Shown: piece after piece, positions 26,634 to 31,750 of the stretch
Layout: each line of letters opens with the position of its first letter
How positions within the stretch are numbered: position 1 is the first letter of the stretch
Source: Desulfurobacterium indicum
Lineage (GTDB): Bacteria; Aquificota; Aquificia; Desulfurobacteriales; Desulfurobacteriaceae
NCBI RefSeq assembly: GCF_001968985.1
Contig: NZ_MOEN01000010.1
Location: 1 to 48,599 of the forward strand
DNA length: 48,599 nucleotides
Reading direction: 5' to 3'
Made by a program: the position numbers and the translations under genes
The notes under the pieces: model-generated
Told to the model about the DNA's origin: nothing
The model's input: only the letters and a program-made list of their open reading frames with translations
Database searches by the model: none

Positions 26634-26736
26634 ATGAAATTTTTCCTTGCGCCCTCACAGCAGGGGATATAAAATTCAATTTACCGAATTAATGACTCCA
26701 TCGTTAATGAAATCTATTTATGTCAGGAGGAGAAAT

Positions 26737-28899
26737 ATGGCAAAAACCTACGGTTACGGCTTTCCCCGATTAGGAAAGCAGAGGGAGTTTAAAACGCTTA
26801 TTGAAGGTTACTGGGCCGGCAAGCTCACGGAAGAGGAGCTGAGAGCAGGAATAGCAAAACTTAACGACAAGAGAGAAGAGACTTACAAGAAGTATGTCGA
26901 TGCATTTCCGAAAGGAGAAATGACTTTTTACGATAACCTTTTCGATACTGCTTTGATTTTTGGTATTTACAGCGCAGAAAGCCTTGATGAATATTTTAAC
27001 CTCTGCCGTGGAAAGAATGCCCTTGAAATGACCAAGTGGTTTAACACCAACTATCACTATCTTGTTCCCGATTTTGAAGGTAAAGAGGTAGAGTTTAAAC
27101 TTGGCTGGAACAAGCACGAAGGTATAAAAAAGAATGCTTATCTTATAGGTCCTTTTACGCTTTTAAAACTTTCTAAAAACCTTCCTGAAGGAAAGTTTAC
27201 TGAGCTTTTAAAGAAATTAGCGGCTAAATATCTTGAATACTTTAAGTTTAACGGTTTTGAATCTGTTCACCTGGATGAACCTGCTTTTGTGATGGAGCTT
27301 ACAGATGGAGAGGTTGAAGCTATAAAAGAAGCTTATAAGAGTTTTGAAAGTGTTGATACCAAAATAAACGTTTTTACCTATTACGATAGCGTTGATAATC
27401 TTCAGTTTGTTTTTGATCTTCCTGTTGCAGGTGTTGGCGTTGACCTTGTTCACGACAGGGGAGAGAACCTTTCACAGCTTGAAAATATAGACCCTAAAGG
27501 GAAAACACTTTACGCAGGCGTTGTTGATGGAAGGAATGTCTGGAGATCTGATGTATTCAAAAAGGCGGAAATTATTAAGAAACTGTCAGAAAAGTTTGAT
27601 GTTGTAATTACAAATGCTGCACTGCTGTTCCATCTTCCTGTAAACCTTAAAGGTGCAACATTGCCACCTGAACTTGTTGCAAAGGTTGCTTTTGCCGAAG
27701 AAAAGCTCAACGAGCTTAAACTTATAGCGGATGTTGTTAAAGGTAAGGAAGATGAGGCACGTTCATGGGTTGAAGGAATTGATAGAGCTTTTGGTGTAAG
27801 AGAAAATGTAAGAGAGAGAGTGAGAAACCTTACGGAAGCGGATTTCAATAAGCCTGTTCCTTATGCAGAAAGGATTAAACTTCAGCAAGAGAGATTAAAA
27901 CTTCCTCTCTTTCCGACAACTACGATAGGTAGCTTCCCTCAAACTCAGGAAGTGAGAAGGGTTAGACTTCTTAACAGAAGGGGTCAGCTTTCAGATAAAG
28001 ATTATGAAACGTTTATAAAAGGTGAAATTGCCAAGGCAATAAAGATTCAGGAAGAGCTTGGTTTGGATGTTTTTGTTCACGGTGAGTTTGAAAGAAGTGA
28101 CATGGTTGAATTCTTTGCAGAAAAGCTTGAAGGGATAGCAACTACAGGTAACGGATGGGTTATTTCTTACGGAACAAGGTCTTACAGACCGCCGATTATC
28201 TTTGGTGATGTTGAGAGAACAGAGCCAATGACCGTTAAAGAGATAGCATTTGCCCAGAGTCTTACAGATAAGCCTGTAAAAGGAATGTTGACAGGGCCTG
28301 TTACAATCATTGCCTGGAGTTACTGTAGAGAAGATATTCCTGTTTCAAAGGTTGCTTACCAGATAGCCCTTGCCATTAGAGATGAGATTGCCGATTACGA
28401 AAAGGCCGGTATTAAGATTGTTCAGATTGACGAAGCTGCTTTCAGAGAAAAGGCACCTATTAAGAAGAGAAACTGGGATGAGTACTTTGACTGGGCTGTT
28501 AAGTCATTTAGAGTTTGCCACGCCAGGTCAAAACCAGAAACTCAGATTCACTCCCACATGTGTTACTCTGAATTCGGTGAAATAATTGAGTATATTCTTG
28601 CTATGGACTTTGATGTTATTTCTATTGAAGCTTCAAGATCTAAAGGTGATATCATAGAAGCGTTTGAGAAGGTTAACTTTGACAGGCAGATAGGCCTTGG
28701 TGTATGGGATATTCACTCTCCATACGTTCCATCTGTTGAAGAGATGAAACCTATTGTTAAGAGAGCTCTTAAAGTTATTCCTAAGGAAAACTTCTGGGTC
28801 AATCCCGACTGTGGACTTAAGACAAGACGCTGGGAAGAGTGTATTCCCGCTATTAGAAACATTGTTACACTTGCTCACGAATTAAGGGAGGAGGCATAA
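26737..28899 (+). CDS. metE: Cobalamin-independent methionine synthase
   Basis: MetE transfers a methyl group from methyl-tetrahydropteroyl-polyglutamate to homocysteine. I place the start at 26737 because AGGAGGAG lies 6 bases upstream and the product then begins MAKTYGYGFPRLG, the family N-terminus; the frame is open 90 bases further 5' but without similarity. The 720 residues have the duplicated barrel layout, TTIGSFPQTQEVRR at the start of the second half and zinc ligands in IHSHMCYSEF and NPDCGLKTRRW. No cobalamin or SAM riboswitch was seen upstream. The stop overlaps the nrdG ATG by 1 base. Confidence 0.97.
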   Translation: MAKTYGYGFPRLGKQREFKTLIEGYWAGKLTEEELRAGIAKLNDKREETYKKYVDAFPKGEMTFYDNLFDTALIFGIYSAESLDEYFNLCRGKNALEMTKWFNTNYHYLVPDFEGKEVEFKLGWNKHEGIKKNAYLIGPFTLLKLSKNLPEGKFTELLKKLAAKYLEYFKFNGFESVHLDEPAFVMELTDGEVEAIKEAYKSFESVDTKINVFTYYDSVDNLQFVFDLPVAGVGVDLVHDRGENLSQLENIDPKGKTLYAGVVDGRNVWRSDVFKKAEIIKKLSEKFDVVITNAALLFHLPVNLKGATLPPELVAKVAFAEEKLNELKLIADVVKGKEDEARSWVEGIDRAFGVRENVRERVRNLTEADFNKPVPYAERIKLQQERLKLPLFPTTTIGSFPQTQEVRRVRLLNRRGQLSDKDYETFIKGEIAKAIKIQEELGLDVFVHGEFERSDMVEFFAEKLEGIATTGNGWVISYGTRSYRPPIIFGDVERTEPMTVKEIAFAQSLTDKPVKGMLTGPVTIIAWSYCREDIPVSKVAYQIALAIRDEIADYEKAGIKIVQIDEAAFREKAPIKKRNWDEYFDWAVKSFRVCHARSKPETQIHSHMCYSEFGEIIEYILAMDFDVISIEASRSKGDIIEAFEKVNFDRQIGLGVWDIHSPYVPSVEEMKPIVKRALKVIPKENFWVNPDCGLKTRRWEECIPAIRNIVTLAHELREEA

Positions 28900-29591
28900 T
28901 GCCTCTCTCCCCTTTTCTCGATGTTGAAACTCCGATTACCTTTAAAGATCAGCCCGGAATTCAATCGGCGGTTTTTTACACGTATATACCCCTGTGTAAC
29001 CTTGAATGCTTTCAGTGCCATAATAAACTCTCCTTTGATGGGCGGTCAGGATTTATCTCTTACGAAAAACTTGATAATAAACTTAATCAGCTAAAACTCC
29101 TTGGTGTTGAATTGATAATTATCTCTGGTGGTGAACCAACACTTGAAAAAAGACTGGAAGAAGGGTTAAAATTTATCAAAGAAAAAGGCTTCCCAGTAAG
29201 AATAGATACTAACGGAACAGTGCCTGGAAAGATAGAGGAACTTATAAGGAATAAAATGGTGGACGGTTTTGCTTTAGATGTTAAAATTCCAATTAAAAAT
29301 GTATATTCTGATGAAGAAAAGGAGAGATTTAAACAAATTTTATTCTCTAATAAACTTGAAAATGATGAAAAAATGTTCTGGTATGTTGAAAATTTAAAAA
29401 AATCTGTTGAAAAAATTAAAAAATTTGCGAAAAAGAAACCTTTACCTCTTGAAAATTATTCTCAATTGACTATATTGAGAACTGTTAGGTATCCCTTACT
29501 TACAGAGAAGGATATCGCTGATATAAAAGCTTTTGCTGAGGCTACCGGGATCCCGCATCAGCTCAATTCTTTTTATAGCGTGGAGGCATGA
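28899..29591 (+). CDS. nrdG: Anaerobic ribonucleotide reductase activase (radical SAM)
   Basis: NrdG uses SAM and an iron-sulfur cluster to create the glycyl radical on class III ribonucleotide reductase. The 230-residue protein carries the cluster motif C33-x3-C37-x2-C40 (CNLECFQC), GG(E/D) motif IISGGEPTLEK and DGFALDVKIPIKN. It resembles the longer NrdG/PflA-type activase usual in thermophiles. It lies immediately before nrdD, overlapping it by 4 bases, and 1-base coupled to metE upstream. The Lys-rich C-terminal third (about 160-190) is more variable than the core. Confidence 0.92.
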   Translation: MPLSPFLDVETPITFKDQPGIQSAVFYTYIPLCNLECFQCHNKLSFDGRSGFISYEKLDNKLNQLKLLGVELIIISGGEPTLEKRLEEGLKFIKEKGFPVRIDTNGTVPGKIEELIRNKMVDGFALDVKIPIKNVYSDEEKERFKQILFSNKLENDEKMFWYVENLKKSVEKIKKFAKKKPLPLENYSQLTILRTVRYPLLTEKDIADIKAFAEATGIPHQLNSFYSVEA

Positions 29592-31135
29592 TGAACAAGT
29601 ATTTCAGGCTTATTGACCTTTTTATCGGTAATGATGATATTGCCAGAAACAATGCGAATTTTGTTAGAGGAATTCCCACTCTTGAGCATGTTGTTGTTGG
29701 TGATGTAATGAAAGATTACCTATTTGATGTTATATATGATGGACTTCCTGTAAGAATTCATCATGAAGAAGGGTGGGCTTACCATCATCAGACATACAGA
29801 CTTTCCGCTTACTGTATAGGTCTTTCTTCCAAGGATATAGCATTTTACGGCTTAAGGAGTAATGCAAAAAATGAAAGGAGAGCAGCCCCTCCGAAAAGAT
29901 TGGAAACACTCTTTATGCAGTGTGCAAATCTGATATGTCTTGTTGCACAGGAAGTTTCAGGTGCAACTTCTCTTAACGATATATCAACAGTTGCTGCAGG
30001 TTACCTATACCACATGGAGAAAATGGGAAAGAAGAAATACACCGATTATGAACTTGAAAACATCTGGCAAGAATTTCTTTACAACATTAACCTTCCTTTT
30101 AGAAGTGGAAACTCACCGTTTTCAAACATTACTCTTGATTTTGCCAAGCCGAATACAAGACTTAAAAATGAGCCAGTTATATACGCAGGTGAGCTTCTAT
30201 CTTATACCTACGGTGAGATTCCTTCAGAGTATTTTGACAGAATAAATGAAGCTTTTATTAGAGCCATGAAGAGGGGTGATGCAGACGGAAATCCTTTTAC
30301 ATTTCCGCTCATTACGGTTAATGTAACTGACGATTTTGATAAAAACAATCCTGCATGGAAACTTCTTTTAAAGGAGTCAGAATACTTTGGAGGATTCTAC
30401 GTTCAGAATTACAAGACAGAACCATTTATGAAAGATTCCATTTACAAGAAAAAAAATCCTTACATAAAACCCTTTGATGAGGGTATGATTTACAGTAACT
30501 GTTGCCGTATGCTCTTTGATATTTCACAGGTTGAAGCGGTAACAGGCTCTAATCCGTTTCATTCCGGTTCAGGTGTTGGCGGTATAGGTGTTTACGCTAT
30601 CAATATGAACAGACTTCTCTTCCTTGCAAAGCAGGATTTTGACCTTTTAACAGCTATGATAGATTACGTGATGGATATTGGTGCAAAGGCTCTTCAAAGG
30701 AAGAGGGCGTGGCTTAAGAAACACTGGAACGATCTATATCCGTATCTATCTTTTTATCAAAAGGATGATAAGTCTCTCTTCAATATCTTTTCAGTTGTTG
30801 GTGTACATGAAGGTATGGTTAATGCCGGTTTTGAAGGCGGTTTATTTAACGATGAGGCCAAGGAGTATGCACATAAAATAGCTCAGTATCTCTACAAAAA
30901 ACTTCATGAATTTATGGAGAGAGATCAGGTTCTCTACTCTCTTGAATATGCGCCGTCTGAAAACGCAGCATGCAGAATGGCGGAAAAGGATATCGCTTTT
31001 GCGAATGCCATTGCTCAGGTGCTTTCAGGAGAAAGAGAAAAAGAGATTTCCGTGGACCCAGAACTTAATAGATTTATAGATAGGGCACTTGAGAAGTTTG
31101 GAGAGCGCATATTTGATATACCAGTTGGGAGGTAA
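29588..31135 (+). CDS. nrdD: Class III ribonucleotide reductase, catalytic polypeptide lacking the glycyl-radical domain
   Basis: This 515-residue protein corresponds to the main part of anaerobic ribonucleoside-triphosphate reductase. It has the ring of conserved features GDADGNPFTFPLITVNVT (about 230-247), the finger-loop cysteines at NCCRMLF (C305/C306), and C76 in SAYCIGLS that may serve as the partner thiol. EYAPSENAACRMAEKDIAF is near 470. It has no N-terminal ATP-cone and stops after IFDIPVGR. It therefore lacks the zinc site and RxxGY radical loop that end normal NrdD. These are encoded by the next gene, which has its own ribosome site, so the enzyme is probably a two-polypeptide NrdD. 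Confidence 0.9.
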   Translation: MMNKYFRLIDLFIGNDDIARNNANFVRGIPTLEHVVVGDVMKDYLFDVIYDGLPVRIHHEEGWAYHHQTYRLSAYCIGLSSKDIAFYGLRSNAKNERRAAPPKRLETLFMQCANLICLVAQEVSGATSLNDISTVAAGYLYHMEKMGKKKYTDYELENIWQEFLYNINLPFRSGNSPFSNITLDFAKPNTRLKNEPVIYAGELLSYTYGEIPSEYFDRINEAFIRAMKRGDADGNPFTFPLITVNVTDDFDKNNPAWKLLLKESEYFGGFYVQNYKTEPFMKDSIYKKKNPYIKPFDEGMIYSNCCRMLFDISQVEAVTGSNPFHSGSGVGGIGVYAINMNRLLFLAKQDFDLLTAMIDYVMDIGAKALQRKRAWLKKHWNDLYPYLSFYQKDDKSLFNIFSVVGVHEGMVNAGFEGGLFNDEAKEYAHKIAQYLYKKLHEFMERDQVLYSLEYAPSENAACRMAEKDIAFANAIAQVLSGEREKEISVDPELNRFIDRALEKFGERIFDIPVGR

Positions 31136-31138
31136 GAC

Positions 31139-31672
31139 ATGGAAAAAGTTCAGAAAATTACACCAAAAATATGTGTAAATGGCGATCCTGCAAGTAAAAG
31201 AGTTTTTTTAACATCAGGATTTCAGGCACCGTTTCAGGAAAAAGATTTGCTTGCACAGATAGATGTAAACTCACATTTTCAAAGTTATGCTACCGGTGGA
31301 AGTATATTTCACCTTTTCACAGCAGAAGAGATGACTCCAGAAGAACAGGAAAAGCTAATATTCAATATAATCGATAATTTCCCCATTCAATACCTTACAA
31401 AGACACCGTTTTTAACAACCTGCAATACCTGTGGACATAAAATGGTAGGAAGGAAAACTACCTGTGAAAGGTGTGGTTCTGAAGATGTTACTTTGTGGTC
31501 AAGACCTATTGGTTACTTTAGACCTGTAATGAGAGGTAAAATTTCAAAGGATTACAAGGAAGCGAACTATCTCTTCTGGTTGAATGGGAGGGTTGAAGAC
31601 TTTGCCACAAGGAAAGAAGTGAGAAAAGAAGATGTTGAGCATATCCTTGAGGAGTTAAACTCAATGCTTTAA
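31139..31672 (+). CDS. Class III ribonucleotide reductase, separate glycyl-radical/zinc subunit
   Basis: The 177-residue protein reads as the missing C-terminal portion of NrdD. It has NSHFQSYATGGSIFHLF (about 44-60), the zinc site C95-x2-C98 and C109-x2-C112, and the glycyl-radical loop SRPIGYFRPV with Gly125 as the probable radical site. It starts at an ATG 3 bases after the nrdD stop, with GGGAGGT just upstream in the end of nrdD. This means it is translated as its own protein rather than being the product of a sequencing frameshift. A strong terminator follows. It would need NrdG for activation and the 515-residue partner for catalysis. Confidence 0.88.
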   Translation: MEKVQKITPKICVNGDPASKRVFLTSGFQAPFQEKDLLAQIDVNSHFQSYATGGSIFHLFTAEEMTPEEQEKLIFNIIDNFPIQYLTKTPFLTTCNTCGHKMVGRKTTCERCGSEDVTLWSRPIGYFRPVMRGKISKDYKEANYLFWLNGRVEDFATRKEVRKEDVEHILEELNSML

Positions 31673-31696: not shown

Positions 31697-31725
31697 AAAG
31701 CCCCTCTTTAAAGAGGGGCTTTTTT
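31697..31725 (+). terminator. Rho-independent terminator of the metE-nrd operon
   Basis: A perfect inverted repeat with core GCCCCTC/GAGGGGC (31697-31722) runs into six consecutive T residues. It is 25 bases after the last nrd stop codon and gives a clear operon boundary. Confidence 0.9.
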
Positions 31726-31750
31726 ATTAGGAAATTTAAGAGATATCTTT

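What the first reader, a model, noticed from the sequence alone, without database searches (positions are those of the whole stretch)
29588..31672. Class III ribonucleotide reductase divided into two genes, with the radical glycine on its own small protein
Seen: the first frame holds the NrdD catalytic core (finger-loop C305/C306) and stops cleanly. Three bases later a new ATG, with GGGAGGT just upstream, opens a 177-residue protein holding the zinc cysteines (C95, C98, C109, C112) and the RPIGY radical loop (G125). Known: characterised class III enzymes carry all of this on one chain; class II split forms (NrdJa/NrdJb) exist in Pseudomonas. Inference: this is a genuine two-subunit NrdD in which NrdG would charge a small dissociable radical carrier, perhaps allowing replacement of oxygen-damaged radical subunits.
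Basis: partly seen in the sequence, partly recalled or inferred. Interest (0 to 1): 0.75.

Follow-up and report, generated by a model that had tools for sequence, protein, structure and literature searches.

The report
Two-gene class III ribonucleotide reductase
In a family of vent-type bacteria and some viruses, the oxygen-sensitive enzyme that makes DNA building blocks is built from two separately made proteins, with the radical-bearing glycine on the smaller one, whereas the characterised versions of this enzyme are single chains.

Summary
nrdG (28899-29591), a 515-residue NrdD core (29588-31135) and a 177-residue protein with the four zinc cysteines and the radical glycine (31139-31672) form one gene cluster. 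The split is not an assembly error or a decayed gene. Of 22 Desulfurobacteriaceae genomes in seven genera, 21 show it; in the last, the contig ends inside the core gene. In all 21 the small gene has its own ribosome-binding site. In the window's genus the two genes share a frame with a stop between them; in the other six genera they are in different frames, usually overlapping, once 337 nt apart. Three viral contigs place nrdG between the two halves, so there they must be separate proteins. Both genes are under strong purifying selection (dN/dS 0.01-0.02), and the genome has no other recognised ribonucleotide reductase. Best reading: an obligate two-subunit NrdD whose small subunit supplies the last barrel strands, zinc site and radical glycine. 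The 'dissociable, replaceable carrier' idea is untested and less likely here, because the cut lies inside the barrel. A separate, more extreme split (glycyl loop on 51-61-residue peptides) occurs elsewhere in the phylum. I found no published account in the open-access library.

The parts
28899..29591 (+). nrdG-like radical SAM activase gene (230 aa), overlapping the large gene by 4 nt
   Evidence: PF04055 E=5e-14; best NCBIfam match TIGR02495 NrdG2, 97 bits, below its cut-off of 131; same gene upstream of the pair in the family's genomes
29588..31135 (+). nrdD large subunit (515 aa): NrdD core without the glycyl radical domain
   Evidence: PF13597 positions 2-427, E=8e-62; ORF ends in TAA
29651..29659 (+). 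N22-A-N24, matching the NxN flap motif over the active site (motif from PMC12662201)
   Evidence: both Asn invariant in 15 split and 3 unsplit NrdDs
30500..30505 (+). finger-loop cysteine codons C305 and C306
   Evidence: invariant in 15 split and 3 unsplit NrdDs; the T. maritima equivalent is SCCR (PMC4493059)
31127..31133 (+). GGGAGGT ribosome-binding site of the small gene, running into the large gene's stop codon
   Evidence: read from sequence; a GGAGG(T) or AGGGGT site precedes the small gene in all 21 family genomes
31139..31672 (+). nrdD small subunit (177 aa): last barrel strands, zinc site and glycyl radical loop
   Evidence: PF13597 positions 437-547, E=8e-22; conserved in the family and in viral contigs
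31298..31405 (+). region of the two predicted barrel strands in the small protein (about residues 54-61 and 84-89)
   Evidence: strands at model residues 573-578 and 602-607; assignment to the barrel is inference
31421..31474 (+). four zinc-ligand cysteines C95, C98, C109, C112
   Evidence: invariant in split and unsplit relatives
31511..31513 (+). radical glycine codon G125 in SRPIGYFRP
   Evidence: invariant in split and unsplit relatives
31703..31727 (+). terminator-like hairpin and T run after the small gene
   Evidence: consensus scan; not evidence of function by itself

Best explanation
This is a working class III (anaerobic) ribonucleotide reductase made of two polypeptides. Shown by sequence: the large subunit carries the core with the finger-loop cysteines and ends at a true stop; a separate start with its own ribosome-binding site makes the small subunit, which carries the zinc site and the glycyl radical loop. 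Inferred: coupled translation makes the two together; they form a stable complex, by analogy a dimer of L-S pairs; the small subunit supplies the last two barrel strands and places G125 next to the finger loop. NrdG, encoded just upstream, makes the radical on the small subunit while its glycyl domain is swung out, and the radical then passes to a finger-loop cysteine on the other polypeptide to start ribonucleotide reduction.
For: Same split in 21 of 22 family genomes, seven genera. Own ribosome-binding site in all 21, with three kinds of spacing: same frame with a stop between, +1 frame with overlap, or gaps of 61 and 337 nt. Three viral contigs have nrdG between the large and small genes. 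dN/dS 0.011-0.024 for both genes. No class I/II ribonucleotide reductase in the window's genus, no class I small subunit in the window's genome, one NrdD only. Catalytic and radical residues invariant. The joined chain models with pTM 0.84 and matches NrdD structures end to end.
Against: No protein, complex or activity has been observed. The model was made of a hand-joined chain (TAA read as Gln), so it cannot prove that separate chains assemble, and the distance from G125 to C305/C306 could not be measured. The PDB matches have only moderate TM-scores (0.5-0.7). Six other genera of the family also have a class I/II-type enzyme, so the pair may be dispensable there.
Confidence: 0.88

Rival explanations
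1. The small subunit is a dissociable, exchangeable radical carrier: NrdG charges free S, S docks on L, and oxygen-cleaved S is replaced by a fresh copy, as YfiD replaces the damaged end of pyruvate formate-lyase.
For: The radical glycine is on a separate small protein beside nrdG. YfiD is a precedent, and its authors speculate about spare parts for other glycyl radical enzymes (PMC8683613). A more extreme split with 51-61-residue glycyl peptides exists in the phylum.
Against: S seems to carry two barrel strands as well as the glycyl domain, so L alone would be an incomplete barrel. S modelled alone is poorly defined (pLDDT 42, shallow alignment). YfiD is hardly charged by its activase unless bound to the cleaved enzyme (PMC8683613). 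The tight gene coupling suggests equal amounts rather than an excess of spare S.
Confidence: 0.12
2. Recoding joins the two frames: stop readthrough or programmed frameshifting makes one NrdD chain.
For: The two ORFs share a frame in the window's genus.
Against: Stops differ (TAA, TGA, TAA-TGA) in the genus; in six genera the frame is +1; gaps of 61 and 337 nt occur; a ribosome-binding site precedes the small gene every time; nrdG lies between the halves in three viral contigs.
Confidence: 0.02
3. Pseudogene or assembly error: a point mutation or sequencing fault has cut a normal nrdD.
For: A single stop codon in one frame can arise by one base change.
Against: Conserved in seven genera and in viral contigs; dN/dS 0.011-0.024; only recognised ribonucleotide reductase in the genome.
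Confidence: 0.01
4. A split intein or similar joins the two proteins after translation (trans-splicing).
For: Inteins are present in the large subunit of several relatives and viruses and in the G135 core.
Against: Pfam finds only NRDD in L and S of the window. The S start has about 20 residues before the conserved region and the L tail is a helical extension of about 35 residues, neither with intein motifs by eye. The split point is a variable linker, not a conserved intein site.
Confidence: 0.01

Closest known systems
Single-chain class III ribonucleotide reductase NrdD (T. maritima 4COI/4U3E; Aquificaceae loci L096-L107)
   Same: Same core, finger-loop cysteines, zinc cysteines, glycyl loop and nrdG neighbour; Aquificaceae proteins are about 40% identical along the whole length
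   Different: One chain; in the Aquificaceae loci nrdG follows nrdD, whereas here nrdG precedes it; the large subunit here has an extra helical tail at the cut
YfiD/GrcA spare-part protein of pyruvate formate-lyase
   Same: A separate small protein carries the radical glycine and works with a larger enzyme
   Different: YfiD repairs a full-length enzyme that has its own glycyl domain; here no full-length NrdD exists and the small protein also carries core strands
Split class II ribonucleotide reductase NrdJa/NrdJb
   Same: A ribonucleotide reductase divided into two chains, with a zinc-finger C-terminal part on the smaller one (PMC9669993)
   Different: Class II uses adenosylcobalamin and has no glycyl radical; its catalytic barrel is whole in NrdJa
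Interrupted nrdD and nrdA genes of phages (Aeh1 NrdA in pieces, phiAS4 and 949 nrdD)
   Same: Ribonucleotide reductase genes in pieces, nrdD being the one most often split; two-piece Aeh1 NrdA is functional (PMC3653736)
   Different: Those cases are sporadic and mostly tied to introns, inteins or homing endonucleases; here the split is fixed in a bacterial family with a dedicated translation start

Membership tests
Class III ribonucleotide reductase (NrdD) | NrdD core domain (PF13597) | tested here: met
   positions 2-427 on L, 437-547 on S
Class III ribonucleotide reductase (NrdD) | finger-loop cysteine(s) | tested here: met
   C305/C306 invariant
Class III ribonucleotide reductase (NrdD) | four zinc cysteines and glycyl radical motif RxxGY near the C-terminus | tested here: met
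   C95, C98, C109, C112 and G125 on S, invariant
Class III ribonucleotide reductase (NrdD) | partner radical SAM activase NrdG | tested here: met
   28899-29591, PF04055; NrdG2 family best match but below its cut-off; next to the pair in relatives
Class III ribonucleotide reductase (NrdD) | all on a single polypeptide, as in characterised members | tested here: not met
   two genes in 21 genomes; nrdG between them in three viral contigs
Class III ribonucleotide reductase (NrdD) | NTP reduction with a glycyl radical | not testable with these tools
   needs biochemistry
YfiD/GrcA spare-part proteins | duplicate of the C-terminus of a full-length glycyl radical enzyme in the same cell | tested here: not met
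   no full-length NrdD in the window's genome
YfiD/GrcA spare-part proteins | rescues oxygen-cleaved enzyme | not testable with these tools
   needs an exchange assay
Split class II ribonucleotide reductase NrdJa/NrdJb | class I/II catalytic domain (PF02867) | tested here: not met
   no PF02867 match in the window's genome or its genus

The most novel reading that the evidence does not exclude
Class III ribonucleotide reductases have been divided at least twice in one phylum: once inside the barrel (this finding) and once so that the radical glycine sits on a peptide of 51-61 residues. In one near-complete genome (G135) such a peptide, encoded next to nrdG and on a different contig from the core, belongs to the only ribonucleotide reductase found. 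If true, the glycyl radical can be made on, and delivered from, a separate and possibly exchangeable protein, so that class III enzymes include forms with a radical subunit in trans, as class I enzymes have.
Probability: 0.4. Interest if true: 0.8.

Novelty: new variant of a known kind. Interest (0 to 1): 0.62.

Why it matters
Class III ribonucleotide reductases are described as single-chain enzymes whose glycyl domain swings out to be charged by NrdG and swings back. A natural two-chain form, fixed in a whole family and probably essential in one genus, offers a way to study radical installation and transfer between separate proteins, since each part can be labelled, mutated or exchanged alone. 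It also shows that annotating this locus as a broken nrdD would be wrong, and it raises the question of whether spare-part repair exists for ribonucleotide reductase.

Tried and rejected
Readthrough, frameshifting, pseudogene, assembly error and split intein were considered and rejected (see rivals). Open-access papers were searched six times for a split NrdD without finding this one; subscription journals are mostly not held. A search of 250 Thermoproteota genomes showed mostly single-chain NrdD, but the listing was cut, so it is not a complete survey. Weak archaeal matches that might have been splits proved to be single ORFs without a glycyl loop. A phage hit (cr85_1) is annotated as a single gene. 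A viral scan for the tiny glycyl peptide found nothing. The genome-collection scan could be run only once and used patterns tuned to this family, so a similar split in distant phyla could have been missed. The small protein modelled alone gave a model too poor to interpret.

Full report
Observation. The window carries three genes in a row: a radical SAM gene (28899-29591), a 515-residue NrdD core (29588-31135) and a 177-residue protein (31139-31672). The core stops at TAA; the next ATG follows after three bases in the same frame, with GGGAGGT at 31127-31133 running into the stop codon. Pfam NRDD covers positions 2-427 in the core and 437-547 in the small protein. A whole-genome search finds only this NrdD, with one TAA inside.

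The split is conserved. In 22 genomes of the family (seven genera) the NrdD profile is divided at the same place. The loci show the order nrdG, large gene, small gene wherever all three are in the stretch read; the small gene follows the large one in 21 genomes, and in G020 the contig ends inside the large gene. Record titles of close relatives name Desulfurobacterium, Thermovibrio and Desulfurobacteriaceae, and the window branches with a Desulfurobacterium sequence. In the window's genus the two genes share a frame with TAA, TGA or TAA-TGA between them. In the six other genera the small gene is in the +1 frame: it usually overlaps the end of the large gene by 11-29 nt, lies 1 nt after it in G009, and lies 61 and 337 nt after it in two genomes. 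A ribosome-binding site (GGAGG or GGAGGT in 19, AGGGGT in 2) precedes the small gene's start in all 21.

Viral contigs give the clearest test. Four of them encode the pair. In three (L110, L112, L113) the nrdG gene lies between the large and the small gene, so the two parts cannot be one translated chain. L112 and L113 look like near-identical copies of this region, so they count as one case. Next to the pair, L111 has matches to a phage single-strand DNA-binding protein, a UvsX-like recombinase and a helicase, and L110 has matches to virion structural proteins. The small proteins of L111 and L112 are about 60% identical to the window's. A tree of joined L and S sequences puts all split sequences, with the pair of L112, on one side of a fully supported branch, which fits a single origin.

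Function is under selection. dN/dS is 0.011-0.023 for the large gene and 0.013-0.024 for the small gene wherever dS could be estimated. The window's genome has no class I/II large subunit and no class I small subunit, and the other three genomes of the genus also lack PF02867. Genomes of the other six genera do carry PF02867 proteins. In the window's genus the pair is therefore the only recognised ribonucleotide reductase, and probably essential.

Anatomy. C305/C306, C76, the N22-x-N24 motif, the four zinc cysteines and G125 are invariant in 15 split and 3 unsplit proteins. There is no sign of an ATP-cone: the large protein starts at position 104 of the PRK08270 profile. The cut falls in a variable linker; compared with unsplit Aquificaceae NrdD the large protein has a longer tail there. 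AlphaFold2 on a chain in which TAA is read as Gln gives pTM 0.84 and mean pLDDT 80.6, with the junction below 50. Its 36 best structural matches are all NrdD structures, with TM-scores of about 0.5-0.7. The small part contributes strands at model residues 573-578 and 602-607, just before the zinc site. In P. [quoted passage not shown] From this I infer that the small protein supplies the last two of the ten barrel strands, the zinc site and the glycyl loop. Modelled alone it is poor (pLDDT 42, pTM 0.29, only 10 sequences). The joined model cannot prove assembly, because the chain was joined by hand.

Mechanism. Established: NrdG makes the glycyl radical while the glycyl radical domain is flipped out of the core, and the domain then returns so that the radical can form the thiyl radical (PMC12662201). 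In T. [quoted passage not shown] Inferred here: coupled translation gives similar amounts of L and S, which form a stable complex; NrdG charges G125 on S; the radical then crosses to a cysteine on L.

Known relatives. Split class II enzymes NrdJa/NrdJb exist (PMC9669993). YfiD is a separate glycyl domain that repairs pyruvate formate-lyase, and its authors speculated about spare parts for other glycyl radical enzymes (PMC8683613). Phage nrdD genes are often interrupted, and a two-piece NrdA works (PMC3653736). None of these is a two-subunit NrdD fixed in a bacterial family. Six literature searches found no description, within open-access papers only.

A second split. In G121 and G124 (same class) the NrdD core keeps the zinc-region cysteines, and the glycyl loop is on a peptide of 61 or 54 residues whose gene overlaps the end of the core gene and has its own ribosome-binding site. 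In G135 (same order, 95% complete) a 51-residue glycyl peptide is encoded just upstream of an nrdG-like gene on a different contig from the core, which carries inteins; no class I/II enzyme was found there. The other two peptides are 85% and 35% identical to the G121 peptide. This cut is at a different place and in a different branch of NrdD proteins, so I take it as a separate event.

Verdict. The exchangeable-carrier idea stays open and is less likely for this pair. I file it as a new variant of a known kind.

Noticed in passing
L065:3775-3960 (G121), L066:1978-2142 minus strand (G124), L068:2558-2713 (G135): A second, different split of NrdD in the same phylum: the glycyl radical loop is on a peptide of 51-61 residues with its own ribosome-binding site; in G135 it lies beside an nrdG-like gene on another contig, and no other ribonucleotide reductase was found there.
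   Followed up: partly
L110, L111, L112, L113: Viral contigs carry the split NrdD pair; in three of them nrdG lies between the two halves.
   Followed up: yes
L089:902-4993, L091:2219-5020, L110:142-2694, L111:661-3990, L067:1359-4832 minus strand: Inteins with homing endonuclease domains sit inside the NrdD core of several relatives, viral contigs and G135.
   Followed up: partly
L124-L129 (Thermoproteota genomes): NrdD-like ORFs of about 700 residues with zinc-type cysteines at the C-terminus but no glycyl loop; function unclear.
   Followed up: partly
L083:2676-2939 minus strand (G079): An orphan 87-residue ORF with NrdD zinc cysteines and glycyl loop beside radical SAM fragments, in a complete genome without an NrdD core: a remnant or a free glycyl radical protein.
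   Followed up: partly
window 26647-28899: A long ORF that looks by eye like cobalamin-independent methionine synthase ends at the base where nrdG begins, so nrdG and the split nrdD may share its transcript.
   Followed up: no
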